From Falsiroseomonas oryzae (lineage in GTDB: Bacteria; Pseudomonadota; Alphaproteobacteria; Acetobacterales; Acetobacteraceae): DNA of 64,000 nt. The stretch is taken from NCBI RefSeq assembly GCF_027856955.1, contig NZ_JAPSMD010000003.1:1-64000 (forward strand). The letters run 5' to 3'. The notes under the pieces are model-generated. The model was not told the origin of the DNA, searched no databases, and worked only from the letters and a program-made list of their open reading frames with translations. The translations under genes were made by a program, and so were the position numbers. Positions 22,929 to 50,118 of this stretch are shown here, in pieces. Each line of letters opens with the position of its first letter. Position 1 is the stretch's first letter.

Positions 22929-23057
22929 TTGGTCCCCGGAGGCCAGCGCCTGAGGTCGGCTCCGGTGTGAAATCCGGATACCCGACAGCTGTCCTAACTT
23001 AAGCCCGCCAGGGATCGGCATTTCAACCCCTGAGTACTGTGACCGTTGCGGCGTCAG

Positions 23058-26738: not shown

Positions 26739-26776
26739 GCAGCGCGCCGTACCGCCTGACAGCAGCAGTTAGACAG

Positions 26777-33121: not shown

Positions 33122-33205
33122 CGCCGATCTCCATGCCAGAGATCAGCTTGGAATCACGACCGCGTCCGGCTGGGAATCCCCGTTCGGCAGGTTTGTCCAC
33201 GTGAC
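32347..33205 (-). mobile_element. IS5-family element (IS427 group), 859 bp
   Basis: Inverted repeats GGTCACGTGG(G/A)CAAACCT differ at a single position between the two ends. CTAG is directly repeated at 32343-32346 and 33206-33209. The transposase is on the minus strand in two frames. Same target preference as the element at 9481-10325 but clearly a different member by repeat and protein sequence. Confidence 0.88.
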
Positions 33206-33316
33206 CTAGGGGCGCGACAGGCCCAGCGTGTATCGACACCACTGCCTTTGCGCTGGCCGAATCCGTTGCGGTGTTGCAAGTTCGGCCCATGCAATTCCAT
33301 TCGCAGTCGATCCACC

Positions 33317-35086
33317 ATGATTGAGCATCTGACACTCAAGAGCTTCCGAAAATTCCAAGAATTCAGCATCGCGCTGAAAGCTGGGAACATTCTGGTCGGC
33401 CCCAATAACGCCGGAAAATCATCAATCCTAGATGCCTTGCGTCTCCTTGAGGCCTGCTTCCGCTACACCACAAACAAGACCCCTGTTATGATGTCGGCAC
33501 CAGGACACGGGGTAGTCGCAGGCTACGAAATCCCCGACACCGCCTTCCCGTTCAGCATGGCGAACGCGACCTACAACTACACAGACGACCCGGCCATACT
33601 GACCTTCCAGCACGCTAATGGCACAACAGCAATAATCCATTTCGACCCTCAATCTAACACAAAATTCTTTGTTGAGGGATCAACAGCACGCCTCAGTACG
33701 GGAGCCAAATTCCGTTCTGCGTTTCCGGTCGATTTTGTTCTTATTCCAACTCTCTCGCCGCTCGAGCCAGACGAGCAGCTTGTTCGCGATGAGACCGTCC
33801 GCAGGAACGCGGGCAACCGCCTCGCCAGTCGGGTGCTCCGCAACATCTGGTATCGCAGAACCGACAGCGAATTTGACGAATTTGCCCGGGAGATAGCGTC
33901 GGCGTGGACGGGCATCGAGATCAAGAAGCCCGAGTTGCAACGCGCCGAAGACCGCACCTTCCTGCGGATGTACTATGCCGAGAATAGGATTGATCGGGAA
34001 GTACAGTGGTCTGGCTTCGGCTTTCAAGCTTGGCTGCAGATCCAGACGCATATTCGGCGAGCCACTGAAAACAGTATCCTCGTCATCGACGAGCCCGATG
34101 TCTATCTACACCCCGATCTGCAGAGGCGCCTCCTCTCTGATATCCGAACGAGATTTCCGCAGTACGTCATGGCCACGCATGCCATAGAGATCATAAACGA
34201 GGCGGACGCGGGTGAGATCGTCGCCATCAACAACAGGCAGAAATCAGCGCGGCGCGTGCGCACTGACGAGGACTACCAATCCGTCTATCGATACATCGGT
34301 TCAGGAGAGAACGCCGCCTTCGCCCGGCTGGCGAAGGCGAAGAAAGTGATTTTTGTCGAAGGTGAAGATGGGCGGCTGCTACGGAGGTTCGCATCACGGC
34401 TCGGCTTTTCTGCCCTGGCCCAGGCCGAGAGCGTGCCGATCGTAAGGCTTGGCGACTTCAGCGATTTGAAGCGCGCCACCAGCGCTGTGTCGGCGCTCGG
34501 CCGCATCCTTCAAATGGACATACAGATCGCCTGTGTCTTTGACAGGGGATATCGGTCAGACTTGGAGATCGACGAGTTCCTTTCCGATCAGCCAGCCGAG
34601 AACATGCAGTGCTTCATTCTACCCCGCAACGAGATCGAAAATTTCCTGCTGGTCTCGGGCGCGCTGCATAGGGCCGTCCTTCATCGGATGGGCGAGCGAA
34701 AGGCAGCAGCCCTCCTGCCCGACGGCGCAATCGACATCCTGCTGAACGATGCCGTGTCCGAGCTCCGACACCTCGTGGAAGGTCAAATGATTGGCCACGC
34801 GATTCGATATGCGAAGCGCGTCGACCAAGGTATCGACGAGGGGGCCATCGCCGGCAGTGTCGTGAGAAAACTCTCTGGAGCCTGGGATGACCTCGGGAAG
34901 TCCTGCGGCTTGGTTCCGGGCAAGGAGACGTTCAGCATGCTTCTGGGAATGCTTCGCGGCCGCCACGGCGTGAGCATCAGCGACACGTCCGTCATCGATG
35001 CCATGCAAAGAAGCGATTTTGATCCTGATCTGGTTCGAATTCTGCGTGAACTTAATGCGTTTTGCGAAGAAGCCCAAGAAAAATAA
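33317..35086 (+). CDS. OLD-like AAA ATPase-TOPRIM nuclease (possible fused PARIS-type protein)
   Basis: A 589-residue protein. The N-terminal SMC/OLD-type ATPase has MIEHLTLKSFRKFQEF, Walker A VGPNNAGKSSILDALR and Walker B VIDEPDVYLHPDLQRR, followed by MATHAIEIIN (switch His). The C-terminal part is TOPRIM-like: VIFVEGEDGRLLRRF near 344, CVFDRGYRSDLEID near 406 and the later LPRNEIENFL. This fits OLD-family anti-phage nucleases; it could also be compared with fused AriA-AriB (PARIS) proteins. GC content is visibly lower than the surroundings, suggesting recent acquisition. It is monocistronic, with the start 108 bp downstream of the IS. No partner gene is adjacent on the same strand. Confidence 0.75.
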   Translation: MIEHLTLKSFRKFQEFSIALKAGNILVGPNNAGKSSILDALRLLEACFRYTTNKTPVMMSAPGHGVVAGYEIPDTAFPFSMANATYNYTDDPAILTFQHANGTTAIIHFDPQSNTKFFVEGSTARLSTGAKFRSAFPVDFVLIPTLSPLEPDEQLVRDETVRRNAGNRLASRVLRNIWYRRTDSEFDEFAREIASAWTGIEIKKPELQRAEDRTFLRMYYAENRIDREVQWSGFGFQAWLQIQTHIRRATENSILVIDEPDVYLHPDLQRRLLSDIRTRFPQYVMATHAIEIINEADAGEIVAINNRQKSARRVRTDEDYQSVYRYIGSGENAAFARLAKAKKVIFVEGEDGRLLRRFASRLGFSALAQAESVPIVRLGDFSDLKRATSAVSALGRILQMDIQIACVFDRGYRSDLEIDEFLSDQPAENMQCFILPRNEIENFLLVSGALHRAVLHRMGERKAAALLPDGAIDILLNDAVSELRHLVEGQMIGHAIRYAKRVDQGIDEGAIAGSVVRKLSGAWDDLGKSCGLVPGKETFSMLLGMLRGRHGVSISDTSVIDAMQRSDFDPDLVRILRELNAFCEEAQEK

Positions 35087-35470: not shown

Positions 35471-37240
35471 TCACGCCGTCGGCTGGTCAGGCAGGTTCAG
35501 AGAGCGGACGTACTCCCAGCAATCTTGCTTCTTTGCCCACTCCGAAACCATGCGGCCTGCCGACGACGCCTGCAACGCTTCGTCCACCTGCTTCGCCCAG
35601 GTCGTCGCCACGGCGACCGCCTGTGGCGTCATGGCCTGCTCCGTCCAGACCCTGTCAAGATCGATGTGTGCCCGTAGCCTCTCTGACATCAGCGCCACCG
35701 TGTACACGGTCACGTTCGCCTGGAAGGCGGTAACCAGCGGCCGCACCAGCTTCTGAACCGTACGGAAGACGATGACCTGCGCGACGATACGCTTGTAGTC
35801 CGAAGCGTTGGAGATCGGCCACCGCGCCGCCCCCTCCTCCTCGTCAAGCAGCTGGCTGAACCTCTCGAAGTTCTTCTGAAGGCCGAAACTGGCGACCTGC
35901 GGAAACCCGGCCCAGGTCATGAGGCACTTGGCCAACTCCGTCTTGTTGAACTTCTTCGCCGGCGGGAACTCTGCCTTCAGCTTCTTGAGGCGAGACGCCG
36001 TATCGCCCTTCCGCGCCAGCATGACGTTGTAGCTGCCCGCCGCCCGCTCGTAGAACCAACGCGTCGTCCCATCAGGGCAGAAGGTCGACTGCGACAGCTG
36101 CTCGAGCTGGCGGTGGAATGGCCGGTTGGCGGAGAGGTCGGAAACCTTCACCGCACTCTGGCTGTTCGCGAAGCGCGAGACGTTGGACACCAGCGCTTCC
36201 CGCGCGGCCTCGCCGTCCTCCCCTCCAGCACCGAGGATGATGATCTTCGCCGGAACCCGCACCGAGCGCAGATCGGTGTCTGCCGCCTTCTTCTTTGTGA
36301 AGTAGATCGACGCGGTGGTCTGCCCACCGTTCACGATCTGAACGCCGCGCAGCCACGCGATGCCAGGTCCACCATCAGCTGTAGCCTCATACCCGGCCTC
36401 GTCGGCGATCATCACCACGCCGTTGTTGAACGCCATGAAGTGCTCGGGGCTTGTCCGAAGCGTGTCACGTATGCCGCGGTTCACCTTGTTCGTAGAACTC
36501 AGGAAGGAGCGGACATTCGCCTCCAGCAGCCGCGCCCCGAACTTCTCGTAGGTCACCCGCAGCGCTTCGCCTGGCAGCGCGGCAAGTGCAACGCTGTAGA
36601 CAGTCTCCTGACCGGGTATCAGCACACAAGGGAGGGGAGCCCCCGAAAGGGACTTGAAGTCGAACACCATCTCGTCCCGCGGCTTTCCCTCGGAAAGGTG
36701 ACGATACAGTCGCTCGATGTCCATGACCTCCAGGCGCACGGTCTTCCCATTCACCTCGCGGCTCTTGAAGCTTTTCGACTTCGCGACCCGATCGGTCAGC
36801 ACGTGGATGGTGATGTGGTCCAGCTTCGGGAAGATCATCTCGATGATCTGCGCGAGCTCGTGGGCCTCGTTCGCCTCGTCGATCCGGCTGGCGAGGCGCC
36901 CCTCAGCGCACTTTGCAAGGAAGGCAAGACAGCGGCCCGCCGCCTGCGTGGTCTCGCTGTCCGGGACGGGTGCAACAGTCTCCATCCCATCGTAGAGGCT
37001 GACGAACAAGTCGAGCTGCTCGTCGTCCCGACTGACCGCGTAGCCGCTCAGCCTGAGCTCGGCGCGATCCACGCGTGCAGCGTAGTGGCAGACCACCGGA
37101 TCGGACGTCATGCCGATCTCCGCCATATGGTCCATGACAAGCTCGGCGAAGACCATCTCGCTGTATGGCGGGGCATCACCCTCCGCCATGCGCTCGCGGA
37201 TATCGGTCTGGAGCTGCTTCAGGAAATCCTCAACCGTCAT
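35471..37240 (-). CDS. AIPR-family abortive infection protein
   Basis: A 589-residue protein of the AIPR family (first linked to abortive phage infection). Diagnostic segments are EHFMAFNNGVVMIADEA and RGVQIVNGGQTTASIYF (the N-G-x-Q-T core), then VSRFANSQSAVKVSDL and RWFYERAAGSYN. Such proteins recur in restriction-modification loci; their biochemical role is unclear. The start overlaps the end of the PD-(D/E)XK gene by 4 bp, making it the last tightly coupled gene of the five-gene operon. Confidence 0.88.
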   Translation of the reverse strand: MTVEDFLKQLQTDIRERMAEGDAPPYSEMVFAELVMDHMAEIGMTSDPVVCHYAARVDRAELRLSGYAVSRDDEQLDLFVSLYDGMETVAPVPDSETTQAAGRCLAFLAKCAEGRLASRIDEANEAHELAQIIEMIFPKLDHITIHVLTDRVAKSKSFKSREVNGKTVRLEVMDIERLYRHLSEGKPRDEMVFDFKSLSGAPLPCVLIPGQETVYSVALAALPGEALRVTYEKFGARLLEANVRSFLSSTNKVNRGIRDTLRTSPEHFMAFNNGVVMIADEAGYEATADGGPGIAWLRGVQIVNGGQTTASIYFTKKKAADTDLRSVRVPAKIIILGAGGEDGEAAREALVSNVSRFANSQSAVKVSDLSANRPFHRQLEQLSQSTFCPDGTTRWFYERAAGSYNVMLARKGDTASRLKKLKAEFPPAKKFNKTELAKCLMTWAGFPQVASFGLQKNFERFSQLLDEEEGAARWPISNASDYKRIVAQVIVFRTVQKLVRPLVTAFQANVTVYTVALMSERLRAHIDLDRVWTEQAMTPQAVAVATTWAKQVDEALQASSAGRMVSEWAKKQDCWEYVRSLNLPDQPTA

Positions 37241-38256
37241 TTCAGGCCTGCCGCCTCCAGGATGGTCGTGAGCGAGGTTGTCGGAAGTGCACGCATGTCG
37301 AGGTCGATCACGTACCGCGCTGACACCACACCGCGAGGCACCGACGCAGCGGTCAGGAGCGGGAAATCGCTACCCACCTCGATCCAGCGCAGGTCAGATA
37401 AGGTCAGGCGCCGCGTATATCGGTCGGCGAACGCGTCGATGTAGCCTGCGCGGAGCAGACGAGCCGAGAAGCTCTGACCGGCATGGCCACTACACGCGGC
37501 CAGCCGCGCTCGGAGCTGGGCCACACGGTGCGGCAGTGTCGATCCGGCATCGGAGCCGGCCAACCGCACAGCGGCGAGGTATATTGGCGACCTGATCGCG
37601 AGGTCCAACTGCTCCAGGGAGCCGATCGTCGCCCTGAAGCCAATAGCCGAAGTCGTCGCCTTGGCCTCCAGCGCCCCGACAGGAAGCATGAAGTCGTGCA
37701 GGCCGCGCAGGGGACCCTGCCACATGTCAACGACCGCCGCGCTGTCAGGAAGCGCTGCCAGCAGCTGTTCGAGCACGACCAGCTCGCCGTGCAAACCGAT
37801 CTCCTCGTCCTCGCTCAGGATCCCGGCGCGCTGATACGACATGAAGTCCTGCCAGGCGCGGATACGAGCGAGAACGGCATCCGCGACTGCCTGCTCATCG
37901 TCATGGAGCGCGTCGGCAAGCAGGCCGATGAGGTCCTGCGCCATGGCCTCGAAAAGGTCTGACCTCGCGCCCTGCTGCCGCGTCAGTGCCAGCAGCAGGA
38001 GGTTCGGGAGAGTGGGATGCCGGATCGCCTCGACAGCAAAGCCGCGGCTGGCCGGCAACTGGCTTGGAGCGGGCAGACGGGCCTGGTGGAAACCAATCAG
38101 CAGCGCCTCACGGTCGTCGGGCTTCTGCCGACCGGCCAGAACGGCTACCTCGCCCAGCCGCACCAGATGAACGATCCGCCAGCCAGAGCTTCCTGCATCG
38201 CCGGCCAGAGCCCGCCAGGCTTCAGCGAGGCGAACTCCATCACTCCGAGGAGCCAT
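37237..38256 (-). CDS. PD-(D/E)XK motif protein, putative restriction endonuclease
   Basis: A 339-residue protein matching the PD-(D/E)XK motif family (also called DUF4420). A helix Glu in IGLHGELVVLEQLL precedes the nuclease core: an Asp in LHDFMLP and E-x-K in ALEAKATTS. It is the likely DNA-cleaving subunit of the GHKL-ATPase/Z1 system. It overlaps the Z1 gene by 17 bp upstream and the AIPR gene by 4 bp downstream. The family and context are established for this system class; the cleavage site is unknown. Confidence 0.85.
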   Translation of the reverse strand: MAPRSDGVRLAEAWRALAGDAGSSGWRIVHLVRLGEVAVLAGRQKPDDREALLIGFHQARLPAPSQLPASRGFAVEAIRHPTLPNLLLLALTRQQGARSDLFEAMAQDLIGLLADALHDDEQAVADAVLARIRAWQDFMSYQRAGILSEDEEIGLHGELVVLEQLLAALPDSAAVVDMWQGPLRGLHDFMLPVGALEAKATTSAIGFRATIGSLEQLDLAIRSPIYLAAVRLAGSDAGSTLPHRVAQLRARLAACSGHAGQSFSARLLRAGYIDAFADRYTRRLTLSDLRWIEVGSDFPLLTAASVPRGVVSARYVIDLDMRALPTTSLTTILEAAGLK

Positions 38257-41098
38257 ATTCCTGCTCCCAGAGCACGTTGTTGACCTTGTACTCCACCTTC
38301 ACGCCGGACCGGCTCCCGGGAAAGCTGATGCCGAGGCCGACGATCCCTTCCACATCGGCCGGGAACTCGACACCAGTCCTGCCGGGATCAAGGACGTAGA
38401 GCAGAAGCAATCCGGAATTGGATCTCGGCGGAACGCCATCAGCACCGAAGCCGCGCACGCGCCGGATAGCTATGCCGTTAGGCGCATCAGGCTCGCTGGT
38501 TTGGTTGCGTCCAGCATCCGCCTTCCACGCCTCTCTGGTCAGGTCGAGTGCAGCCGCCCAGGAGGCATGATCCAGATCGATCGCCTCGTCACGTGGCGCC
38601 AGAAGTCGCCCGATCGAGAAGCGGTCCGCGGTGAACGTGCGCTGGCTACGCTGCGGCATCTTCACCGCGACGCCCTGGCCGAGCTCGATCACACGACGAT
38701 CACCTCCGCCGAGAATAGCGACCGTCCATGAGGTCAACTCTCCCGTCCTCGACATCGACTCGATGAATTCTCCAAGGAGGCGAGCATCCGTCTTGTAGGC
38801 ATCCGGATGGGTCTTGTACGCGGCGAGAAATGCAGTGATCCGGTCCGCCGGAACAGCCCGCCAGAGTGCACCTTCCCATTCGTGCTTCATCGATGGTCGG
38901 ATGCGCTCGATCCGCGGGCTCTCATCCGGCACCCCGATGGCGTCAACCAGGGCACGCAGCGCCTTCAGATTGCCTCGCAGCACTCCAGGGTCTCGATGGA
39001 AGGCTACCGTCTCGACCACCTGCCCGCTGAAGGACAGCATGAGGGTCTTCGCCGACCTCATCTTTAGACGCGATGTGACCATCAGCACCGGATGTGACTG
39101 CACCTTCAGGCCGTAGTCGCGCGGCGTCCCGCCGCTGGCCTGCATGAGATCGAACTCCTCCCTCAGTTCCTCGGACGCATCGGCGATATGCCCGAACCAG
39201 TCGATGAGATCGGACGTGGTGTAGAGGCGGCAGAGATCGAGATATCCGGGCCTGTAGCCGAACCAGCGCCCCATCTGCATCAGCGTGTCGTACATGCGCG
39301 AGGCTCGGAGGAAGTAGCTCGTGCAGAGGCCCTCGAGGGTGAGCCCCCTCGCAAGCTTGTCTCCGCCAATGGCGATGACCTTGAGGCCCGTGGCCGCATT
39401 GTCGACGTAGTCCAGCGCGTCCTTCGCCGTGCCGTTGATCATCCGGACCTCAATGTCCGATGCGACATCAGGCAGGACGTCTGCGATCTGCTCCCAGCTC
39501 ACCGGCCGGATCGAGGGATCGTCGACACGCGCTCGCACTGCTTCCGTGGCCGGGACGAAATCCTCCACCCAGAGCTTCCGGAGGTCCTCGACCAGGCGTG
39601 CGCTGTCGATGCGACGCTGAAGGCGCTGGGTTATGCCGCGCATCAGGTCAGCGACCTGCCGATGCACTTCGGTCTGCACGGCGTTGAACCTGGTGACGTG
39701 GATCAGCATCGAGCAGTGCCGATTGCCCTGGCCTCGGACCGTCCGCGCGGCACATGCCAGCAGGAACGAAAGGATCGCCGTCCTGAGAGAAGCCGGTACC
39801 CCGTCAGAAGTGACTGCGGGCGGGCTGTGAGTGCTCTTGTGACCCTGTGGCATCCACCCGCCGGCAACAGCGGCGTCCTGGTGATCGGCGACAACCCTGA
39901 CCAGCGGAAGGCCGCCATCGCGTCCGTTCGTGGTGCGGAGGCCGAATATCCGCGCCGGGCCGACGTAGGTCGAAGGTGCCGCAAGATTCACGATGAACGC
40001 ACTCGGGAACAGGTCCAGCCCCTCCTCGCGAGTGGCGCCTCGCTCGTGGATGAAGATGTTGGCGAAGGGCGTCGCCGTGTATCCGACGTAGGCCGACCGC
40101 GTGAACGAGTGCAGCAGCCTCCGGATGAGCTTGTTGATCTCCGTCGGGGAGTGGTTCTCGTCCGGCCTCCCCTGCTCATCGAAGACCTGCTCGCCGGTGT
40201 CGACCGACGCATGGTCCGCTTCGTCGTCCAGAAGCAGGAGCGGCAACTTCGTCACAAGCCGACGGCCTGTCTCCTGATCCCTCGAGTCGGCGACATGGTT
40301 CCTGACCCAGGCAAGGAGGCGCGTGAGGACCGTCTTGTTCTTCTTGACCACGAAGAGCCACGGCCGCTGCTCGGGGCTTATGCCGAGGTTCCGCGCAATG
40401 GCAGTCGAGAAGTCGCCGTTGTTGGTCCGGTTGGTCACATAGTTCGGTCGGATCGCGGGATCCCCGTCGATCTCACCGACGCCGATCGGCGCGGTGTCAC
40501 CTGCCAGGGGAGCTGTCGCGTATCCCAGGAAGCCCTCATCAAGGCGCATCTGCGTCTGCGCACGCAGGTTGTTGTGAAGCCCCGCGAGGACGATGATGAT
40601 CTTGTAGCCGGCATCTGCCGCCTTGCAGATGAGCCCGGTATAGTTGCCCGTCTTCCCCGACTGCACATGGCCGACCACGAGGCCGCGGCGATCCCAGTCA
40701 CCCTCACGCCGGGGATCCTCGAGCAGCCCGAGTATGCCGTCGGTCGATCGGTCAAGAGCGTCGATGGCATCAAGCGGGAGGTCGCGCTCAAGCCACTCTC
40801 GGTACCTCTGCCAGAGACGCCAATCCTTCTTCCGCGCAGCCTCCAGCCAGGCGACATGTCCGGCATCGTTCTTCAGCGTTCCGTCGCGGCCGATCCACAT
40901 GGAGAAGCGCCGGATGAGTTCCTCGGTGACCGCTGCACGGTCAAGGCCTTCGCCCCATGACGGCTTCATCCTGAGAACGAGATCGATCTGGTCGGCAATC
41001 AGCGCCGGCCCGATCCTGCTGCGGTCAGTCTCCTCCAGCAGGAGTTCCTGCACGAACTTGACCACCTTCTGCGCGTGCGTTTCCGGCGTTGCGTTCAT
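38240..41098 (-). CDS. Z1 domain helicase-like ATPase
   Basis: A 952-residue protein with a superfamily-II-like P-loop (Walker A VVGHVQSGKTGNYTGLI near 146), Walker B LLLLDDEADHAS near 294, VGYTATPFANIF, and the Z1-domain segments VIAIGGDKLARGLTLEGL and MGRWFGYRPGYLDLCRLY. Z1 proteins are found beside MORC/MutL-type GHKL ATPases and nucleases in predicted R-M systems, where they probably translocate on or remodel DNA. The start is 6 bp from the end of the GHKL ATPase gene. Confidence 0.9.
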   Translation of the reverse strand: MNATPETHAQKVVKFVQELLLEETDRSRIGPALIADQIDLVLRMKPSWGEGLDRAAVTEELIRRFSMWIGRDGTLKNDAGHVAWLEAARKKDWRLWQRYREWLERDLPLDAIDALDRSTDGILGLLEDPRREGDWDRRGLVVGHVQSGKTGNYTGLICKAADAGYKIIIVLAGLHNNLRAQTQMRLDEGFLGYATAPLAGDTAPIGVGEIDGDPAIRPNYVTNRTNNGDFSTAIARNLGISPEQRPWLFVVKKNKTVLTRLLAWVRNHVADSRDQETGRRLVTKLPLLLLDDEADHASVDTGEQVFDEQGRPDENHSPTEINKLIRRLLHSFTRSAYVGYTATPFANIFIHERGATREEGLDLFPSAFIVNLAAPSTYVGPARIFGLRTTNGRDGGLPLVRVVADHQDAAVAGGWMPQGHKSTHSPPAVTSDGVPASLRTAILSFLLACAARTVRGQGNRHCSMLIHVTRFNAVQTEVHRQVADLMRGITQRLQRRIDSARLVEDLRKLWVEDFVPATEAVRARVDDPSIRPVSWEQIADVLPDVASDIEVRMINGTAKDALDYVDNAATGLKVIAIGGDKLARGLTLEGLCTSYFLRASRMYDTLMQMGRWFGYRPGYLDLCRLYTTSDLIDWFGHIADASEELREEFDLMQASGGTPRDYGLKVQSHPVLMVTSRLKMRSAKTLMLSFSGQVVETVAFHRDPGVLRGNLKALRALVDAIGVPDESPRIERIRPSMKHEWEGALWRAVPADRITAFLAAYKTHPDAYKTDARLLGEFIESMSRTGELTSWTVAILGGGDRRVIELGQGVAVKMPQRSQRTFTADRFSIGRLLAPRDEAIDLDHASWAAALDLTREAWKADAGRNQTSEPDAPNGIAIRRVRGFGADGVPPRSNSGLLLLYVLDPGRTGVEFPADVEGIVGLGISFPGSRSGVKVEYKVNNVLWEQEYGSSE

Positions 41099-41104
41099 TC
41101 GCGC

Positions 41105-42619
41105 TCAGGCCTCATTGGCAGGCATGTCAGGAAGTGCAGCGACGAGGTCCGGGTAGCCGTCGAACGGCTCCGACAGGAGCAGCCGCTCACGGGCTTCGGC
41201 AGGGCTGAGGCCGCGTCGCCTCACGAGATTCCGGTACATCACTTCGAGAACCTGACGGACCTCTGCAGGTGGCGACGCCGTGAAGCCGGTGCGCGGCGTC
41301 TCCTTCGCTTCCGCCGTGTCGAGCCAGATCCTCTGCACGGGGACCGTCTCCTCGACCACGCGAAGCATTGCCCGGACAAGCGGCGTCAGATCGCCTGCCT
41401 GGTGGAGCACGGCAGCCACTGCAGGGTGCGTCTCGTCGATCCGATAGCGCACGCCGTCTGCCGTATGCTGGGCGGTCCAGGCCTGGACGACCGGCTGCCC
41501 CGTCCGTCTGGCAATCACCCGCCCGCGCCATGCAAAGACCCTGCGCGCACGTTCGCGCGTGTCCTCCGCGAGTGCCGTGAGCCGGGGCCGGACCTCTACC
41601 GGTGGACGGGCCGTCGACTTGCGGACATCGATCTTCCAGGCTTCGTCTGCGCCGGAGCCGATCTCGACCCGGATCCGGGCGAGGCGGTGAGCCTCCTCCT
41701 TGGTCCAGGCACGCCCCCGGCCCAGTCCGAGCCATGTGCCACCGAGGAGCAGGCGCTCCTGACGATAGACGTAGAAGCCCTGCTGCGCGGTCCAGCCATC
41801 AGGCCCCCCTCCGGCAGCGTAGGCACGGGGGTCAAGGCGATCCTTGTGCGGCAGCACATGGGCCTGGACGACGATCGCACCGGCCGAACTCTGGATCCGC
41901 TCCTCCGGAGAAGACCATGTGTCCCGATGATCCTTGAGGAAGGGATCCCATGGCTCCACACGACGGCCGTTCAGCGTGATCCTGAAGCGCGGGCGTGAAC
42001 CCTCGATGTAGCGGTGGAAGACCATCGCGAGATGGCGCTCAACCCGATCGATCAGATCGAGCATGTCCTGCTCGCGGAAGCCGGAAGTCAGGATCCGGTC
42101 CATAACCTCCCATGCCACAAGGGTCCCCGTCCCTTCCGGCGGCAGCACTGCGAGCAGCTGTTCCGATCCCGGTGCTGGTCCCTCGAGGAGTTCCCATTCG
42201 TGACCACCGGTCGCAGCAATCTCGTCCAGGTCCCAGCGGAGGCAGGACACTGACCCTGCCTGTCGGCTCGCGACCGTCAGCCGCCGGCACTGTGAGAAGG
42301 AGGCCGTCTTCAGGCCGAGGCCGAAGCGTCCGAGATCACCAGGGGCGCGTGGGTCGAGCGGATTGCGGTCGCCGAGACGCATGGACCGCTCGAGGTCCGC
42401 CGCGCTCATTCCGCGGCCATCGTCCACGATGGTCACATACGAAGACGAGCCAGCCCAGACGAACTCGATGTCGACCTTCGATGCTGCTGCGGCAATGCTG
42501 TTGTCGATGATGTCTGCCAGGGCCGAGGACGTCGAGTAGCCGAGGCCACGGAGGGCCTCGATCATCGCTGTCGCCTTTGGCGGCGCCAGGATCCGGCGGG
42601 GTGGGCGATTGCCGGTCAT
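41105..42619 (-). CDS. MORC/MutL-like GHKL ATPase
   Basis: A 504-residue protein with the Bergerat fold: N-box SALADIIDNSIAAA, G1 VDDGRGM, G2 GRFGLGLKTASFSQ, and an S5-like middle domain (FYVYRQERLLLGG, IDVRKSTARPPVEVR). This matches the prokaryotic GHKL ATPases related to MutL and eukaryotic MORC described in R-M operons. It probably undergoes ATP-driven dimer clamping on DNA and signals to the Z1 and nuclease subunits. The start codon overlaps the stop of the sigma-like gene (ATGA), so its translation depends on that gene. Confidence 0.88.
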   Translation of the reverse strand: MTGNRPPRRILAPPKATAMIEALRGLGYSTSSALADIIDNSIAAAASKVDIEFVWAGSSSYVTIVDDGRGMSAADLERSMRLGDRNPLDPRAPGDLGRFGLGLKTASFSQCRRLTVASRQAGSVSCLRWDLDEIAATGGHEWELLEGPAPGSEQLLAVLPPEGTGTLVAWEVMDRILTSGFREQDMLDLIDRVERHLAMVFHRYIEGSRPRFRITLNGRRVEPWDPFLKDHRDTWSSPEERIQSSAGAIVVQAHVLPHKDRLDPRAYAAGGGPDGWTAQQGFYVYRQERLLLGGTWLGLGRGRAWTKEEAHRLARIRVEIGSGADEAWKIDVRKSTARPPVEVRPRLTALAEDTRERARRVFAWRGRVIARRTGQPVVQAWTAQHTADGVRYRIDETHPAVAAVLHQAGDLTPLVRAMLRVVEETVPVQRIWLDTAEAKETPRTGFTASPPAEVRQVLEVMYRNLVRRRGLSPAEARERLLLSEPFDGYPDLVAALPDMPANEA

Positions 42620-45600
42620 GGTACCAGGTTCTCGAATTGACGGTTCGGCAGAAGGCGCGGCAGGCGCTTAAGCGTTTTGGCCTCGATCTGCCGGATCCGC
42701 TCGCGGGTCACGCGGTAGACCTGCCCCACCTCCTCCAGGGTCAGCGGATTGCCGTCCGTCAGACCGAACCGAAGATCGATGATGCGGGCCTGTCGGGCGT
42801 CCAGATTGCGGAGGCTGGCGGCGAGAAGCCGCCGCAGGTCATGGTGCAGCAGGGCAGTCAAAGGCGTTGCTTCATCTACGAGGGGGGCTGGGACTGCGGC
42901 CTCCTCGTCAGGCCGCGTCCCCGTATCGTCCAACCAGATACCTTCCAGATCCGCCGCCAGGGCGCGTTCGACGGACAGAACGTCTGTCTCAAGCGCGTCC
43001 GCCAGCTCCCGTGGTGTCGGCTCCAGCCCGCTCTTGACGCGCAGGGCTTCTGAAACACGCTTCGCCTTGGCGATCCGCTCCAGCATATGCACCGGCACGC
43101 GAACCGTGCGCCCCTGGTCCTGCACGTAGCGGCTGATCGACTGCCGGATCCACCATGTCGCGTAGGTCCCGAAGCGGAAGCCGCGATTTGGATCAAAGCG
43201 GTCTATCGCCCGCAGCAGTCCGATCTGGCCCTCCTGGACTAGGTCGAGGAAGGGCACGGCGGCACGGGCATAGCGGCGAGCCAACCAGACCACGCGCTTC
43301 AGATTGGCCTCGACGATCGCCTGTCGCGCGTCGACGTAGCGCTGGAAGACATCGCTCAGGCCTGCCGGTCCAGCCGGCTGCTGTACCCTGAAGGCTGGCC
43401 GCCGCAGAACGGCAAGTTCGTGGCCAATGTCATCCGGGCGCCGGATGCTGGCGCGCAGGCCCTCACGGCCACACATGCCGTTCCGACCCAGACATGCCTC
43501 GGTCAGCTCCAGGATACGGCGAGGCGTCAGTCGAGCAGCAGCCAGAAGTTCCTGCGCCGCGCCTCGCTGAAGGAGTGTCCTCGCGGTCGCACGAAGATGC
43601 GCAGCCAGGGCGTCTGCTGCCGGGTTGCCTGCATCGCCAGGAAAATCGGCGAAGGCCTTCTCTCCCGGTTCCGCTTGGGTGTCCTGATCAGGATCCGATG
43701 CGTCCGCGCCGTCCTGGTCGTCTGCGCCCCAGTCGGCCTCCGATATCTCCCGCGGAAGCACGGAACGAGCATTGAGCTGATCCGCCCATTTCTCAAGAAG
43801 CGATGCCACCAGAGGGTTGGAGGAAGCAGCTCGCTGCAGGAAAGTCAGCGATGCAGCGATCTCGTGGAAGAGGCGCGTCTCCGCCGCCTTGGACAGAACC
43901 GGCGCGCGTGCCGCGGCTTCGAGCAGAAGACGCTCAGCATCGGGCGACGCGCCCCAGATCTCGGTCAGCCGTTCGGCTGCTGCTGCGACCTCGTATCCGG
44001 TCCCTGTCGTCCGCAGGTCATCGCCCTCGACAACGGCCATGCGCGTCCAGTCGATGGCATGCTCGTCTTCCACGAGGATCCCGAGGTCCTCCAGCAGGAT
44101 CTCGAGCGCCGCGACAAGGCGGTGCCCCCGTTCGCCGTCGACCAGGCTTTCACGCAGGGCATCGAGTTCCTCGACAAGGATGCAGCCCTCGCGGAGACCA
44201 GCCGAGACCAGGTGGGTGACTGCGCGAAAGCCGTCAGATCCTTCCCTGAACGCGTCCGTCCAGTCCGGTGCCGTGTCAGGCAGGTCGATGTGTGTGTCAG
44301 CCCAGTCGGCATCCGGCAAAGCAGCTGCATGCCGGCTGACTGCCGTCTCGCGCTGTGCTGCCGCAGCGGCGATATCCGCCCCGGAAGGCGTCAGGTCCGG
44401 CTCAGGTTCGGGCTCCCATGCTGCTTCGACAGCTTCGTCCGGGATTATGCTTTTCGCCAGGATGTCGACTGCGTTCGACATCCCGGTAGCTTCCGATGAA
44501 CCATTGTGAGCCTGTCGCAGCGTGGCTGCCGCTCCACGCATCATCGAGAGGCCGACAGGTGACAGCGCCTCCTGAGTAAGGTCCGACCAGTCAGTGGTGG
44601 TCCGGCTGGCCAGCGTGGCCGGATGGCAGGCCTGTTCGTCTTCGACGAACGGATGAGCCGGCTCGGCGCTCGGGCGTTCGGGTCCATCTTCAAGGGGCGC
44701 GTCATTCGACGGTCTCGGCAGGGGCCCGTCGCTGGGCCCTGGGCTCACTACAGGCGGCCCAGGATCCTGCTGACAGCCCCACTCCGTCGACGCCCCACCA
44801 TCCTCCGGAACCCAGCAGACATCCTGAGCCGCGGCTTGTGTGTCGATGCCGCACGTGTCGATGGTGGTTTCGTGGGATTGCGCCCAGCCGGATGGGCGGT
44901 CTCCAGTCTGCGGCGCGTTGCCTTCGTGCAGTAGGACGTCGGCCGGCATAGTGGGGACGTCACCACCGCCCTGAAGAGCTGTCACACCCACGGAGGTGAA
45001 CACATCGGCAGATGCGAACGGCAGTTGATAGGAGTTTAGCAGACCAGGGGCGGCCTTTCCGGACTGCACGCCATGATGGCTGCCCTGTTCGCCCGTTACG
45101 AGCGGGTCAGCCAATTCGGCTTCCTCTGCAGCAGGAACCTCAATCGCCGACCTTGGTGCCTCCCCGTCATCAGGCCCAGAGCCTGTCCGAGCCGCACTCC
45201 GGTCATCCTCGACGACCCAGCCGTCTGATGCATCAGCGCCGTCCGGAACCACGGAGACGTCACGAGCCTCAGCCTGCCCGTCGGTGGCGCAAGAGGCGTT
45301 GGACGTTGCTGGTGGGGGCGCCACGCCAGACGCAGCAGGAGCCTCAGGCTGCTCTGCAGCCTGCTTCTGCAGTGAGACGGCACCCAGCAGTGAGGCTGCT
45401 TCACCATCGTCGTGTATAGCTGCAGGCGGCTCAGCCGAGGCCGGCAGGCTTGGCGCCGAGTGTGCCGCTAGGAGGGCCAGGACGGGCGAATGACCCTTCA
45501 CCCGCGCAAGCGAGATCGCGTCGTCACCACTCAAGTCACGCAGGGCTGGGTTGGCACCGGCCTGCAGCAACACCCGACAGACATCCAGGTGACCACGCAT

Positions 45601-45786
45601 CGCCGCCAGCATGAGGGGCGTACGTCCCTGGGCGTCGCGACCGTCAATCGGCGCGCCGCGTCTGAGATGGAGTTCCACGGCGGCCGCAACACCCGAGGCC
45701 AAGGTCAGCCGGAACAGCGTCCCGAGGCTAGGCGACGTGCTCAAGCAGCCTTCCCCGCGCGCATGGTCCACGTTACCTGATAACAC
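42616..45786 (-). CDS. Ankyrin repeat-sigma70 fusion protein, first gene of the MORC-type restriction operon
   Basis: A 1056-residue protein. Residues about 25-105 are ankyrin repeats (DAQGRTPLMLAAMRGHLDVC, VLLQAGANPALRDLSGDDA). About 110-560 is acidic, Ala/Glu/Pro-rich and partly repetitive. About 560-760 resembles the non-conserved and 1.2-like part of RpoD. From about 815 there is a full sigma70 core: region 2 with DLVQEGQIGLLRAIDRFD and GFRFGTYATWWIRQSI, region 3, and region 4 with LTLEEVGQVYRVTRERIRQIEA (-35 helix). It is the promoter-proximal gene of the operon, joined to the GHKL ATPase by ATGA. The GTG at 45786 is used here, but TTG 45744 has the better Shine-Dalgarno (GGGGAAGG). It may direct RNA polymerase to island promoters. 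Confidence 0.85.
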   Translation of the reverse strand: MLSGNVDHARGEGCLSTSPSLGTLFRLTLASGVAAAVELHLRRGAPIDGRDAQGRTPLMLAAMRGHLDVCRVLLQAGANPALRDLSGDDAISLARVKGHSPVLALLAAHSAPSLPASAEPPAAIHDDGEAASLLGAVSLQKQAAEQPEAPAASGVAPPPATSNASCATDGQAEARDVSVVPDGADASDGWVVEDDRSAARTGSGPDDGEAPRSAIEVPAAEEAELADPLVTGEQGSHHGVQSGKAAPGLLNSYQLPFASADVFTSVGVTALQGGGDVPTMPADVLLHEGNAPQTGDRPSGWAQSHETTIDTCGIDTQAAAQDVCWVPEDGGASTEWGCQQDPGPPVVSPGPSDGPLPRPSNDAPLEDGPERPSAEPAHPFVEDEQACHPATLASRTTTDWSDLTQEALSPVGLSMMRGAAATLRQAHNGSSEATGMSNAVDILAKSIIPDEAVEAAWEPEPEPDLTPSGADIAAAAAQRETAVSRHAAALPDADWADTHIDLPDTAPDWTDAFREGSDGFRAVTHLVSAGLREGCILVEELDALRESLVDGERGHRLVAALEILLEDLGILVEDEHAIDWTRMAVVEGDDLRTTGTGYEVAAAAERLTEIWGASPDAERLLLEAAARAPVLSKAAETRLFHEIAASLTFLQRAASSNPLVASLLEKWADQLNARSVLPREISEADWGADDQDGADASDPDQDTQAEPGEKAFADFPGDAGNPAADALAAHLRATARTLLQRGAAQELLAAARLTPRRILELTEACLGRNGMCGREGLRASIRRPDDIGHELAVLRRPAFRVQQPAGPAGLSDVFQRYVDARQAIVEANLKRVVWLARRYARAAVPFLDLVQEGQIGLLRAIDRFDPNRGFRFGTYATWWIRQSISRYVQDQGRTVRVPVHMLERIAKAKRVSEALRVKSGLEPTPRELADALETDVLSVERALAADLEGIWLDDTGTRPDEEAAVPAPLVDEATPLTALLHHDLRRLLAASLRNLDARQARIIDLRFGLTDGNPLTLEEVGQVYRVTRERIRQIEAKTLKRLPRLLPNRQFENLVP

Positions 45787-45891
45787 TTCCTACGGGCCGG
45801 CAAGTCGCCGGGCCGCCCCCTGGTCCATTCTGATGTAGAACAGATTCGGCCCTGGCGGCCAGAAGTTCAAGCCCGCAGCGAGGGGCAGAGC
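45787..45891. promoter_or_regulatory. Divergent promoter region between restriction and modification genes
   Basis: A 105-bp spacer between the leftward sigma-restriction operon and the rightward vsr-methyltransferase pair; both promoters must lie here or overlap the 5' ends. It contains the odd palindrome CTGGCGGCCAG at 45852-45862, a possible operator. No convincing -35/-10 pair could be assigned by eye, which would be natural if the operon's own sigma factor reads it. Confidence 0.5.
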
Positions 45892-46413
45892 GTGCCGCGA
45901 AAGCAGTCCATCACCAGACGAAGCGACACACCGCCCGGACAAGGGCAACGGCTCGATTCCAGCAGCACACGCCGGCACCGCGGCGACATCATGTCCCCCG
46001 AGAAGCGCAGCGCCGTCATGGCGAAGATCCGGGGGCGGGATACGGGACCCGAAAGGATCGTCGCAGGGCTGCTCCAAGACGCCGGCCTGACCTTCGAGAG
46101 CCATGCCCGGGACCTGCCGGGCAGGCCCGATTTCGTGCTGCGTGACCGACAGGTCGCCATCCTGGTGGATGGGGACTTCTGGCACGGCTGGCGCTTCCCG
46201 GAATGGCGGGACAAGCTCTCGCCAGCATGGGAGGCCAAGATCGAAGCCAACCGCCAGCGGGATAGGCGGAACATCCGACGTCTGCGACGGCTGGGCTGGG
46301 CAGTGATCCGCCTGTGGGAGCATCAGGTGAAGCGGGATCCAGCGAAATGCCTGTCGCGGGTGCTTCTCCTTGTTGAACGTGCGTCGGACGGTCAGGCCGC
46401 CGGCCAACTATAG
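45892..46413 (+). CDS. vsr: Vsr-type very short patch mismatch endonuclease
   Basis: A 173-residue protein with the Vsr core: SAVMAKIRGRDTGPE, LPGRPDFVL (catalytic Asp), VAILVDGDFWHGWRFP (His) and RNIRRLRRLGWAVIRLWEH. Vsr nicks 5' of the T in T:G mismatches that arise when 5-methylcytosine deaminates, protecting methylated sites. It precedes the C5-methyltransferase gene by 46 bp, its expected partner. The GTG at 45892 has GAGGGG upstream; ATG 45991, which begins at the conserved core, is the alternative start. In MORC-type loci Vsr-like enzymes may also take part in restriction. Confidence 0.88.
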   Translation: MPRKQSITRRSDTPPGQGQRLDSSSTRRHRGDIMSPEKRSAVMAKIRGRDTGPERIVAGLLQDAGLTFESHARDLPGRPDFVLRDRQVAILVDGDFWHGWRFPEWRDKLSPAWEAKIEANRQRDRRNIRRLRRLGWAVIRLWEHQVKRDPAKCLSRVLLLVERASDGQAAGQL

Positions 46414-46459
46414 ACAGCCTGCTGGTCGACGCCTCGGAAGCCTGGTAGGACCAGGTTCG

Positions 46460-47416
46460 ATGACGATTCGAACACTTGACCTGTTCTGCGGCGGCGGTGG
46501 GAGCAGCTACGGGGCGAGGCGTGCCGGCGCACAGATCGTCTGTGGGGTCGATGCCTGGGACGTCGCGATCACGGCATACCGCTCGAACTTTCCTGAGGCG
46601 CGCACTGTCCAGCTGCGAATGACCGATCGCACGACGGTCGGCGAGGTCGGTGATCTCGGCGGCATTGACCTGCTTCTGGCCTCCCCCGAATGCACCAATC
46701 ACACCTGTGCCCGGGGAAGCCGTCCACGGGACGAGGAGAGCCGCGCAACAGCACGCTACGTGCTCACCTTCGCTGCCGCACTCGAACCTCGCTGGATCGT
46801 CCTGGAGAATGTGGTGCAGATGAAGAGTTGGGATGGCTACCCAGGTCTTCTGGAAGAACTGAAGCGCCTCGGTTACTGCCTCCGCGTCGAAGTGCTCGAC
46901 GCGTCAAAGTTCGGGGTCCGCCAATCGCGACGCCGCCTGTTCATCGTGGGAGATCGAAAGGCGGAACCTCCGCCGATCCCCCAACGCAAGGGGCGCGCAC
47001 CTGCGGCTGCGGGGATCCTGGACAGACCCGGCCTTTGGCCGACCAAGCCGCTCTACACCCCAGGCAGGGCAGCCGCGACGATCGAGCGGGCCGAGCGGGG
47101 GATGACCGAGCTTGGGATGTATGAGGATTTCCTCATCGTTTACTATGGCAGCGATGGATCGGGGGGGTGGCAGCCGCTTGACCGACCCCTTCGAACAATC
47201 ACGACCCTGGACCGCTTCGCATTGGTGACGTGGCAGGGGAAGGAGCCCATGATCAGGATGCTCCAGCCTTCTGAGCTGTCACGTGCGATGGGCTTCGACG
47301 GCGATTACTCGCTCACTGCCGTTCGCAGCCGACGCGACCGGATCAAGGTGTTGGGCAATGGCGTTGCCCCCCCCGTCATGGAAGCGATCGTGAAGAGCCT
47401 CGCCTCCGCCGGCTGA
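46460..47416 (+). CDS. C5-cytosine DNA methyltransferase with SPEC motif IV (M2)
   Basis: A 318-residue methyltransferase: motif I RTLDLFCGGGGSSYGA, motif IV ASPECTNHT (Pro-Cys core altered to P-E-C, Cys kept), motif VI IVLENVVQMK, motif VIII VRQSRRRLFIVG, short recognition region, motif IX around MLQPSELSRAMGF, motif X VLGNGVAPPVMEAI. It should place 5mC to protect the host from the divergent GHKL/Z1/PD-(D/E)XK restriction genes. The ATG at 46460 gives motif I at the usual position; the frame is open further upstream by chance. The recognition region is short, suggesting a short target. Confidence 0.88.
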   Translation: MTIRTLDLFCGGGGSSYGARRAGAQIVCGVDAWDVAITAYRSNFPEARTVQLRMTDRTTVGEVGDLGGIDLLLASPECTNHTCARGSRPRDEESRATARYVLTFAAALEPRWIVLENVVQMKSWDGYPGLLEELKRLGYCLRVEVLDASKFGVRQSRRRLFIVGDRKAEPPPIPQRKGRAPAAAGILDRPGLWPTKPLYTPGRAAATIERAERGMTELGMYEDFLIVYYGSDGSGGWQPLDRPLRTITTLDRFALVTWQGKEPMIRMLQPSELSRAMGFDGDYSLTAVRSRRDRIKVLGNGVAPPVMEAIVKSLASAG

Positions 47417-47720: not shown

Positions 47721-48074
47721 ATGACGATCATCATCGGTCCGAACGGCATCATCGAAGGTGCCGTTGCGGGCGAGATCCAGCGGCTGGCTGGGCTCCTCCA
47801 CGATCTCAGACGCATTGCTGGCGGCCTGCCGCCAGATCCTGGCCACCTCCGCAGTGCGCCGCAGCTTGACGGATGGTCCATCACGTCACGCCCTTCGGCG
47901 TGCCTGACCGGTGTCGTCAGCGGACACCCGACAGCAAGCGGGCCCCGCATCATCACAAGTGACCTCTGGGTCATCGCGCCGACGGCAGGTTGGGCCCGCA
48001 CGATGTCGAGGCTCTACCGGCTCGGCGATCCGGCATGCCCGACAGATATCACCTCCCAGGCTGCAGCGAGGTGA
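47721..48074 (+). CDS. DUF6634-like small protein
   Basis: A 117-residue protein beginning MTIIIGPNGIIEGAVAGEI, with the later segments LHDLRRIAGGLPPDPGHL, APQLDGWSI, GVVSGHP and TSDLWVIAPTAGWARTMSRL-YRLG. The last pattern is what I recall for DUF6634 proteins of alphaproteobacterial islands. Its stop codon lies inside the Shine-Dalgarno region of the FtsH-like protease gene, 7 bp before that start, so the two are coexpressed. Function unknown; it may be an adaptor or antidote for the protease. Confidence 0.6.
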   Translation: MTIIIGPNGIIEGAVAGEIQRLAGLLHDLRRIAGGLPPDPGHLRSAPQLDGWSITSRPSACLTGVVSGHPTASGPRIITSDLWVIAPTAGWARTMSRLYRLGDPACPTDITSQAAAR

Positions 48075-48081
48075 CGCAGCG

Positions 48082-50118
48082 ATGTGGCACAATCAGCAAG
48101 AGAGTTCGGTCGACAACGGGGCGCTCGACGCCAACTGCGACGCCGAGAACTCCGCACCGAGCACCACGCAGAGAACAGCCCCGGAGCTGTGCCCTGTTCG
48201 CGCAACCGCGCATGTGATGGTCCGCCGTGCCCTGCACGCCAATCCCACCCTTCGTACGCTCTCCCGCGCCGGATCAACGGTCATCGTAATCCGCGCACCA
48301 GATGAGCGTTGGGCTCAGGCCGTCGTGGATGCATGGTCGGCAGAGTGGCGCAGCGTAGCATGCGAGGCATCAATCGATGAACCAGATGCCGCCATGCCGG
48401 CGGACGCGCTGATGATCCGCGGCACGACGACGCTGCCGGGAGGTCGCGATCGAGAGGATCTTGTCAGGCGGATTGCTTCGGCGCTCGCGGAAGGCAGGCA
48501 AGTCCACGCACTGGCGTGCGCGCCTGATCGTGAGCTGCTGCCGGAGTTGCTCCAATTGGCGAATGCAACCGCAGCGATTGAGTGGCCGGACGGGGCGGAT
48601 CTCGCAGAGGCCTTGGGACTGCACTACGGCCGTGCGCCTTCCTGGACGCCAACCAACGCGAACTCCGTGAACATCTTGCCGGCCGACCTGCTCCTCACCC
48701 ACCGGCCGGATCGTGACCCGGACGCGCACCTGCGGAGAGCGATGGTTTTTGTCTCCCGCCGGCATCAAGCCGCCGTCGGTCAGCTTCGCCTTGAAGACCT
48801 TCACGGCATGCAGGCAGTTGTGGAATGGGGCCTCCGTCTGCGCACCGACCTTGCGCTTTACCGCAGCGGCCGGCTGCCGTGGCGTGACGTAGACAAGGGA
48901 GCGCTTATCGTAGGCCCGCCCGGAACCGGCAAGACCACGTTCGGCCGCGCGCTTGCTGCGTCCTGCTCGGTGCCGCTGATCCAGGGCAGCGTGGCCAAGT
49001 GGCAGGCGTCAGGAACTGGGCACCTGGGCGACATGCTCAAGGCAATGCGCCGCACGTTCGACGAGGCGCGTGCAGCGGCTCCGTGCATCCTCTTTGTGGA
49101 CGAGATCGACAGCCTCGGGGACCGCAGCAGGTTCGATAGCCGCAATCGTGACTACAGCACGCAAGTGCTCAATTCGATGCTTGAGCTGTTGGATGGACTC
49201 GAAGCTAGGGACGGCGTCGTGTTCGTCGGCGCCACCAACCGTCCCGAGGCGCTCGACCCTGCCCTCATCAGAGCGGGACGCCTTGACCGGATGATCCGCA
49301 TCGACCTCCCCTCTGCCGAGGAACTCCAGAAGATCTTCCGCCACCATCTTGGTCAGGAGCTGCCTGACGCTGATCTGCAGATGATTGTGCGATCGCGCGT
49401 CGGGATGACCGGTGCGGATGTGGAGCGAGCGGTGCGGGGCATGCGACAGCGCGCCAGGCATGAGGCCCGGGCTCCATGCATGAACGACCTTCTCTCCGAA
49501 CTGTCGGATGCAAAGGTCATCTTGTCTGAAGACATGCGCTGGCGGATCGCCGTCCATGAGGCCGGTCACGCCGTCGCAATCCTGCATCTCCGCCCAGAAG
49601 CATTGAGGTCTGTGTCAGTCGGACGAACGGCAGGAGATACGGGCGTGCTGGGCGTCGTCGCTACAGCACCGGATCTCTGCGGTTCTGGTCCGGGGACACC
49701 CATCACGCGGCATGCAATCCTGAACGCGATTGCCGAGCGGCTCGCCGGACGGGCCGCCGAATGGCAACTGCAGGGAGAGGTCAGCGCGGGCGCCGGTGGA
49801 TCGCCAAGCAGCGATATCGCGATGGCGACCTGGCTTGCGACGGTCGCCGTTTCCGCTTTTGGGCTGGACGGTAGCGGCAGTCATGCCCCCGTCTGGCGTG
49901 GCCTGCCGGATGTCGATGATGTCCCGCGGCTCCTGCTGCAGCATCCTGGGATCGCCCGGCAGGTCGAGGCCATGCTGCACGAAGGCTACGAGCGCGCCCT
50001 CTGCCTCATGCGGGACGAGGCCAGTTCCGTCGAGCAGGTGGCGAAGCGATTGATGGTTGCCGATTGTCTGACCGCGGATGAAGTGCGGGAAACGGTCTCA
50101 GCTGCGAGACAGGCCTGA
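48082..50118 (+). CDS. Soluble FtsH-like AAA+ zinc protease
   Basis: A 678-residue AAA+ protease. The N-terminal 250 residues are unique and lack any transmembrane segment. The AAA module has Walker A IVGPPGTGKTTFG (about 275), Walker B CILFVDEIDSLGDR and the second region of homology VGATNRPEALDPALIRAGRLD. The M41 peptidase has zinc ligands HEAGHA (about 491) and a probable third ligand in SPSSDIAMAT. It is therefore catalytically complete but, unlike housekeeping FtsH, not membrane-anchored. The ATG at 48082 is preceded by GAGGTGA. It sits between a DUF6634-like gene and a small hypothetical. Regulated proteolysis of island factors is a guess. Confidence 0.85.
   Translation: MWHNQQESSVDNGALDANCDAENSAPSTTQRTAPELCPVRATAHVMVRRALHANPTLRTLSRAGSTVIVIRAPDERWAQAVVDAWSAEWRSVACEASIDEPDAAMPADALMIRGTTTLPGGRDREDLVRRIASALAEGRQVHALACAPDRELLPELLQLANATAAIEWPDGADLAEALGLHYGRAPSWTPTNANSVNILPADLLLTHRPDRDPDAHLRRAMVFVSRRHQAAVGQLRLEDLHGMQAVVEWGLRLRTDLALYRSGRLPWRDVDKGALIVGPPGTGKTTFGRALAASCSVPLIQGSVAKWQASGTGHLGDMLKAMRRTFDEARAAAPCILFVDEIDSLGDRSRFDSRNRDYSTQVLNSMLELLDGLEARDGVVFVGATNRPEALDPALIRAGRLDRMIRIDLPSAEELQKIFRHHLGQELPDADLQMIVRSRVGMTGADVERAVRGMRQRARHEARAPCMNDLLSELSDAKVILSEDMRWRIAVHEAGHAVAILHLRPEALRSVSVGRTAGDTGVLGVVATAPDLCGSGPGTPITRHAILNAIAERLAGRAAEWQLQGEVSAGAGGSPSSDIAMATWLATVAVSAFGLDGSGSHAPVWRGLPDVDDVPRLLLQHPGIARQVEAMLHEGYERALCLMRDEASSVEQVAKRLMVADCLTADEVRETVSAARQA

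What the first reader, a model, noticed from the sequence alone, without database searches (positions are those of the whole stretch)
42616..45786. Ankyrin-sigma70 fusion as first gene of a restriction operon
A 1056-residue protein joins ankyrin repeats, a long acidic linker and a complete RpoD-like sigma70 core with both promoter-recognition helices, and its stop codon overlaps the start of a MORC-type GHKL ATPase in the restriction operon. Sigma factors do not normally belong to R-M operons. A dedicated sigma factor could switch the restriction genes on only when an ankyrin-bound partner is released, for example on phage entry, or protect transcription from phage anti-sigma factors.
Basis: partly seen in the sequence, partly recalled or inferred. 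Interest (0 to 1): 0.88.

Follow-up and report, generated by a model that had tools for sequence, protein, structure and literature searches.

The report
Sigma-factor gene of MZA defence operon
The odd protein that joins ankyrin repeats to a complete sigma factor is real, but it is the normal first gene (mzaA) of a known bacterial anti-phage system called MZA; what the sigma factor does there is still unsolved, and comparative evidence suggests that it is a working promoter-reading factor that travels with its operon.

Summary
Window 45786-42616 (minus strand) is one intact frame: ankyrin repeats, a disordered linker and a complete primary-type sigma factor, overlapping a GHKL ATPase gene by ATGA. 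The true start is probably the conserved TTG at 45744. The "unusual restriction operon" is the known MZA anti-phage system, mzaABCDE. All five genes hit their PADLOC and NCBIfam MZA models, below NCBI's naming cut-offs, so this is a divergent member. Ankyrin plus sigma is the usual MzaA architecture, found directly upstream of MzaB in 72 of 98 related loci. New here: (1) promoter-reading residues are nearly or fully invariant in 73 MzaA proteins and dN/dS is 0.11-0.17 in sigma regions 2-4, so it is not a decayed RpoD; (2) sigma marks one MzaBCDE clade, co-evolves with it, and was lost once, in Pseudomonas, where a cytosine methyltransferase takes its slot; (3) an invariant Trp motif lies between linker and sigma; (4) a cytosine methyltransferase and Vsr usually lie nearby; (5) in seven Comamonadaceae or Xanthomonas genomes, exact TGTAGAATTTGTA occurs once, upstream of mzaA. 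Best guess: a dedicated sigma factor that activates its own operon. The trigger and the ankyrin role are unknown.

The parts
45442..45729 (-). ankyrin-repeat domain of MzaA (residues 20-115), pLDDT mostly above 95
44377..45441 (-). low-confidence, probably disordered, fast-evolving linker of MzaA (residues 116-470)
44275..44328 (-). conserved Trp motif DWxDxxxxLP of MzaA (about residues 487-504; W495 invariant in 71 of 71 rows)
44047..44274 (-). sigma region 1.1-like domain (residues 505-580), weakly supported by sequence, collinear and compatible in the model
43357..44046 (-). sigma region 1.2 and non-conserved region (residues 581-810)
42619..43356 (-). sigma regions 2, 3 and 4 (residues 811-1056), promoter-reading residues intact
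41105..42619 (-). mzaB: GHKL (MutL/MORC-like) ATPase, start overlaps mzaA stop
38240..41098 (-). mzaC: Z1-domain helicase-like protein
37237..38256 (-). mzaD: DUF4420 PD-(D/E)XK nuclease-like protein
35471..37240 (-). mzaE: AIPR protein
45745..45990 (.). probable divergent intergenic region between mzaA and vsr
45857..45908 (.). block conserved among three close relatives (30-column windows up to 83% three-way identity, against 30-47% in the flanks); candidate regulatory region
45991..46413 (+). vsr-like very-short-patch-repair endonuclease (ORF listed from 45892, probable ATG at 45991)
46370..47416 (+). C5-cytosine DNA methyltransferase (dcm superfamily; best PADLOC hit DrmMII), companion of the operon

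Best explanation
This is the mzaA gene of a divergent MZA anti-phage operon (mzaABCDE) with a cytosine methyltransferase-vsr pair beside it. MzaA is most likely a functional, dedicated sigma factor: it binds host RNA polymerase and reads a promoter in front of its own operon, so that the ATPase, Z1, nuclease and AIPR genes are made under its positive control. That would resemble the way controller (C) proteins gate the restriction gene in some restriction-modification systems. The ankyrin domain, linker and Trp motif would be the regulated part, holding the sigma factor back or docking it to a partner. Shown: gene content, domain order, intact and selected promoter-reading residues, stable co-inheritance with MzaBCDE, a sigma-less sister arrangement, and (in other genomes) a site unique to the mzaA upstream region. 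Inferred: RNA polymerase binding, autoregulation, the trigger and the ankyrin role.
For: All five genes hit MzaA-E models in order. In 73 MzaA proteins T572, L573, R584, E585, R588 and Q589 (E. coli sigma70 numbering) are 73/73, and Q406, W434, Q437 and R441 are 71-73/73. dN/dS is 0.11-0.17 for sigma regions 2-4, 0.23-0.35 for ankyrin and 0.47-0.69 for the linker in the closest relatives. The MzaA sigma domain forms one group apart from RpoD, and its distances track MzaC distances (Mantel r 0.79, largest of 500 permutations 0.08). The sigma label needs only two changes on a tree of 96 MzaC proteins (shuffled mean 18.5). The exact site TGTAGAATTTGTA occurs once in each of seven Comamonadaceae or Xanthomonas genomes, each time upstream of mzaA. 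A C5 methyltransferase lies within the fetched flanks of 58 of 72 sigma-bearing loci and a Vsr in 53, several of the rest being cut by contig ends.
Against: No sigma70-type promoter was found in front of mzaA in the window, and the TGTAGAATTTGTA site is absent there and has no recognisable -35 partner, so a promoter read by MzaA is not identified. The seven genomes were chosen because they carry the site near mzaA; only its uniqueness elsewhere is new information. Related MzaBCDE operons live without the sigma factor, even in the same genus (L185), so it is not essential to the nuclease machinery. No experiment on MzaA itself was found in the papers held.
Confidence: 0.45

Rival explanations
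1. MzaA is a sensor or targeting subunit of the defence complex: it joins RNA polymerase or promoter DNA (or meets a phage protein that seizes RNA polymerase) and thereby triggers or directs MzaB-E, without regulating transcription.
For: Stop-start overlap and tight co-evolution with MzaB-E; ankyrin and the invariant Trp motif are typical protein-docking parts; retained sigma surfaces would suit recognition of RNA polymerase capture (inference).
Against: Invariance of the -35 reading residues in all 73 proteins is more than a pure RNA polymerase sensor needs; MzaBCDE exist without it.
Confidence: 0.25
2. MzaA is a timing device like a restriction-modification controller: it delays expression of the nuclease genes after the operon enters a new cell until the neighbouring methyltransferase has protected the host DNA.
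For: A C5 methyltransferase and Vsr accompany most loci; MzaA is the first gene, overlapping the next, as C genes often precede R genes (general knowledge); in the Pseudomonas clade that lost sigma, the methyltransferase occupies the first slot.
Against: In several sigma-bearing loci the methyltransferase also lies just upstream on the same strand (for example L043, L046, L093), so order alone does not separate the cases; it is not known that the methyltransferase protects against MzaBCDE.
Confidence: 0.17
3. MzaA is a spare primary sigma factor that keeps host transcription going when a phage anti-sigma factor inactivates RpoD.
For: Near-complete primary sigma architecture with RpoD-like -10 and -35 residues.
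Against: It is locked to one defence operon and co-evolves with it; the -35 helix is so similar to RpoD that escape from region-4 anti-sigma factors is not obvious. Not tested.
Confidence: 0.1
4. Decayed or misassembled RpoD copy of no function.
For: None found.
Against: Intact frame, invariant key residues, dN/dS far below 1, same architecture in tens of species.
Confidence: 0.02

Closest known systems
MZA anti-phage system (mzaABCDE; Gao et al. 2020, cited in PMC9523054; PADLOC MzaA-E, NCBIfam NF041931-NF041935)
   Same: Same five genes in the same order; MzaA is a sigma70-family protein and its NCBIfam model also covers the ankyrin part (profile positions 2-154).
   Different: All five proteins score below NCBI's curated cut-offs for the named equivalogs; the linker of this MzaA is unusually long; a methyltransferase-vsr pair lies divergently beside it.
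MORC/paraMORC-helicase-nuclease restriction-modification operons (Iyer, Abhiman and Aravind 2008, PMC2292703) and the Type II systems of PMC9523054 (2022)
   Same: GHKL ATPase, helicase-like protein, PD-(D/E)XK nuclease, AIPR, cytosine methyltransferase and Vsr.
   Different: The words sigma and ankyrin do not occur in the 2008 paper; the 2022 paper reports mzaA in only a few of its systems.
Group 1 (primary) sigma70 factors, RpoD
   Same: Regions 1.2, non-conserved, 2, 3, 4 and probably 1.1.
   Different: N-terminal ankyrin domain, long linker and Trp motif; forms its own group apart from RpoD; carried in a defence operon.
Controller (C) proteins of restriction-modification systems (from general knowledge)
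   Same: Would be a regulator encoded as first gene with the nuclease genes.
   Different: C proteins are small helix-turn-helix activators, not sigma factors; the likeness is in proposed role only.

Membership tests
MZA anti-phage system | Five genes mzaA-mzaE, contiguous, one strand, in that order | tested here: met
MZA anti-phage system | MzaA is a sigma70-family protein, usually with N-terminal ankyrin repeats | tested here: met
MZA anti-phage system | Scores above NCBIfam curated cut-offs for the named equivalogs (a naming threshold of the narrow equivalog, not a structural feature of the system) | tested here: not met
   467.8/800, 788.2/850, 1364.3/1500, 339.8/420, 830/1050 bits
MZA anti-phage system | Phylogenetic place within the sigma-bearing clade of MzaC | tested here: met
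   (midpoint root; sample biased towards the window's relatives; the experimentally validated MZA operon is not itself in the tree)
MZA anti-phage system | Protects against phage | not testable with these tools
   needs phage challenge of the cloned operon
Primary-type sigma70 factor | Regions 2, 3, 4 with -10 and -35 reading residues | tested here: met
Primary-type sigma70 factor | Region 1.2 and non-conserved region | tested here: met
   hhalign E 5.7e-14, probability 98
Primary-type sigma70 factor | Region 1.1 | tested here: inconclusive
   hhalign E 1.5e-4, probability 52; collinear, compatible helices in the model
Primary-type sigma70 factor | Binds core RNA polymerase and initiates transcription | not testable with these tools
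   needs biochemistry
Restriction-modification controller (C) protein | Small helix-turn-helix activator with a C-box operator | tested here: not met
   MzaA is a sigma70 protein; only a functional analogy is proposed

The most novel reading that the evidence does not exclude
MZA carries its own dedicated primary-type sigma factor that reads a promoter found only in front of the defence operon, gated by ankyrin repeats and a conserved Trp motif: a self-contained RNA polymerase-reprogramming switch for an anti-phage nuclease system.
Probability: 0.35. Interest if true: 0.65.

Novelty: new member of a known kind. Interest (0 to 1): 0.36.

Why it matters
The gene combination is already catalogued, but no account of why a defence system needs a full sigma factor was found in the papers held. 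The data here make that testable: the sigma part is intact and selected, operons with and without it exist in one genus, one clade has swapped it for a methyltransferase, and one clade has a candidate cis site unique in the genome. If MzaA is a dedicated sigma factor, defence expression would be controlled at the level of RNA polymerase itself, which phages commonly attack.

Tried and rejected
Frameshift or chimaera: rejected by homologues with one continuous frame. Decayed RpoD paralogue: rejected by invariant residues and dN/dS. Sigma70-like promoter in the window spacer: none found. TGTAGAATTTG as a -10 element with a -35 partner: looked for by eye in 15 loci, no shared -35. Idea that sigma simply replaces a methyltransferase-first operon: true for Pseudomonas, but several operons have methyltransferase, sigma and MzaB-E in a row. 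Search for MzaA at a strict E-value in 369 genomes of another class found none, and no control rang, so it says nothing. The primary paper on MZA (PMC7985843) is not held; several literature searches returned no MzaA mechanism.

Full report
OBSERVATION. The frame 45786-42616 on the minus strand encodes one uninterrupted protein. Pfam finds ankyrin repeats at residues 35-109 and sigma70 regions 2, 3 and 4 at 824-1042. The last codon overlaps the next gene's ATG as ATGA. Comparison with the five nearest relatives shows a shared TTG at 45744 as the likeliest start, so the protein is probably 1042 aa rather than 1056. The divergent vsr gene probably starts at ATG 45991, which leaves an intergenic region of about 246 bp.

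IDENTITY. The five genes on the minus strand (45786-35471) each hit, in order, the PADLOC models MzaA, MzaB, MzaC, MzaD and MzaE and the corresponding NCBIfam models. All scores are below the NCBI naming cut-offs (467.8/800, 788/850, 1364/1500, 340/420, 830/1050 bits), so this is a divergent member. The MzaA model of NCBIfam also matches the ankyrin part (profile positions 2-154, 115 bits, window 45232-45726). In Thalassospira marina, whose MzaE carries the MZA name in its record, the neighbouring sigma factor also begins with ankyrin repeats. MZA is described as a validated system, with mzaA called a sigma factor, in PMC9523054, which cites Gao et al. 2020; the original paper is not held.

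CO-OCCURRENCE. A search with MzaC gave 80 genome loci and 14 viral-contig loci; with four plasmid loci these make 98. A sigma-bearing gene lies directly upstream of MzaB in 72. Of the 26 without, several are cut by contig ends or have a transposase there; five Pseudomonas or Stutzerimonas loci (L038, L040, L053, L054, L056) have a C5 DNA methyltransferase in that place. In the window's own family, six genomes (the window's, L180, L181, L182, L183 and L029) have MzaA-E, and in five of them, including the window's, a Vsr gene lies divergently beside MzaA; two more (L184, L185, one of the same genus) have the same methyltransferase-Vsr-MzaBCDE layout without MzaA. A C5 methyltransferase is present within the fetched DNA of 58 of 72 sigma-bearing loci, and a Vsr in 53.

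IS IT A WORKING SIGMA FACTOR? In an alignment of 73 MzaA with RpoD, the -35 reading residues T572, L573, R584, E585, R588 and Q589 are present in 73 of 73; Q406, W434, Q437 and R441 in 71-73; W433 is replaced, mostly by Y or F, in a subgroup. The window protein keeps all of these. dN/dS in sigma regions 2-4 is 0.11-0.17 among the closest relatives, 0.23-0.35 in ankyrin and 0.47-0.69 in the linker, which also varies by hundreds of residues in length. An AlphaFold2 model from 69 sequences has confident ankyrin and sigma parts and a disordered linker (mean pLDDT 66); Foldseek's best matches are E. coli sigma70 chains. Profile comparison supports region 1.2 and the non-conserved region strongly and region 1.1 weakly. 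One tryptophan outside the sigma core, W495 in a DWxDxxxxLP motif between linker and region 1.1, is invariant in 71 of 71 rows; its role is unknown. At least five MzaA (L065, L079, L091, L101, L103) lack the ankyrin region but keep this motif and the sigma part, so ankyrin gating cannot be universal.

HISTORY. On a tree of 96 MzaC proteins the sigma label needs two changes (shuffled mean 18.5): one for the clade and one in Pseudomonas. The root is a midpoint, the sample favours the window's relatives, and some long branches are unsure. The sigma domains of MzaA form one group apart from 21 RpoD-type proteins (a FastTree tree with several long branches), and their distances track those of MzaC (r 0.79; largest of 500 permutations 0.08).

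A DEDICATED SITE. Upstream of mzaA, k-mer counting gave TGTAGAAT in 6 of 52 regions (0.1 expected). It lies 110-177 bp before the inferred start in a Burkholderiales/Xanthomonas group. In 14 further loci of the family of L061 the nine-base core TGTAGAATT is exact in five and one base off in four (one of the exact ones, L154, duplicates L065). In seven genomes the exact 13-mer TGTAGAATTTGTA occurs once, always at mzaA; with one mismatch allowed there is at most one further hit per genome, and the reversed control pattern gives 0-2 hits. Since genomes of two groups share a site found nowhere else in them, a factor encoded in the operon is a natural reader, and MzaA is the obvious candidate. This is inference: there is no recognisable -35, the site could act as an operator or in the mRNA leader, and it is not in the window. 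In the window a different block, 45857-45908, is conserved among the three closest relatives.

MECHANISM. I consider positive self-control by MzaA the likeliest reading (0.45), with a direct role in the defence complex (0.25), a restriction-modification-like timing role (0.17, a special case close to the first) and transcription rescue (0.10) as rivals. The evidence shows an intact, selected sigma factor tied to its operon; it does not show RNA polymerase binding, promoter use, a trigger, or what ankyrin binds.

VERDICT. Real and well observed, but a member of a known system. The open question about the sigma factor is worth an experiment.

Noticed in passing
window 14748-23021 (minus): Three genes matching SspH, SspG and SspF, the phosphorothioation-linked restriction module, in the same defence-rich region.
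   Followed up: partly
window 26714-30067 (plus), with 24432-26738 upstream: Schlafen/AlbA_2 plus NACHT protein with an overlapping 768-aa partner of no known family: candidate NLR-like defence pair.
   Followed up: no
window 32810-35086 (plus): OLD/GajA/AriA/PtuA-like ATPase, convergent with mzaE; its real start is probably near residue 169 of the listed frame.
   Followed up: partly
window 47911-50118 (plus): FtsH/Cdc48-like AAA ATPase with peptidase M41 domain, weakly similar to IetA, beyond the methyltransferase.
   Followed up: no
L061, L066, L067 and other MzaA C-termini: C-terminal extension of about 100-150 aa after sigma region 4; in L061 it matches the EH-signature end of ZorC.
   Followed up: partly
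L080:3-635: Frame before mzaB that by eye resembles an MzaA linker and Trp motif without any sigma part; could be natural sigma loss or an assembly fault.
   Followed up: no
L027:4858-6666: Caspase-like repeat protein upstream of a sigma-less MzaBCDE in Azospirillum, identified by eye only.
   Followed up: no
L061:5679, L065:6129, L105:5777 and others: TGTAGAATTTGTA upstream of mzaA, unique in the genome in seven genomes tested.
   Followed up: yes
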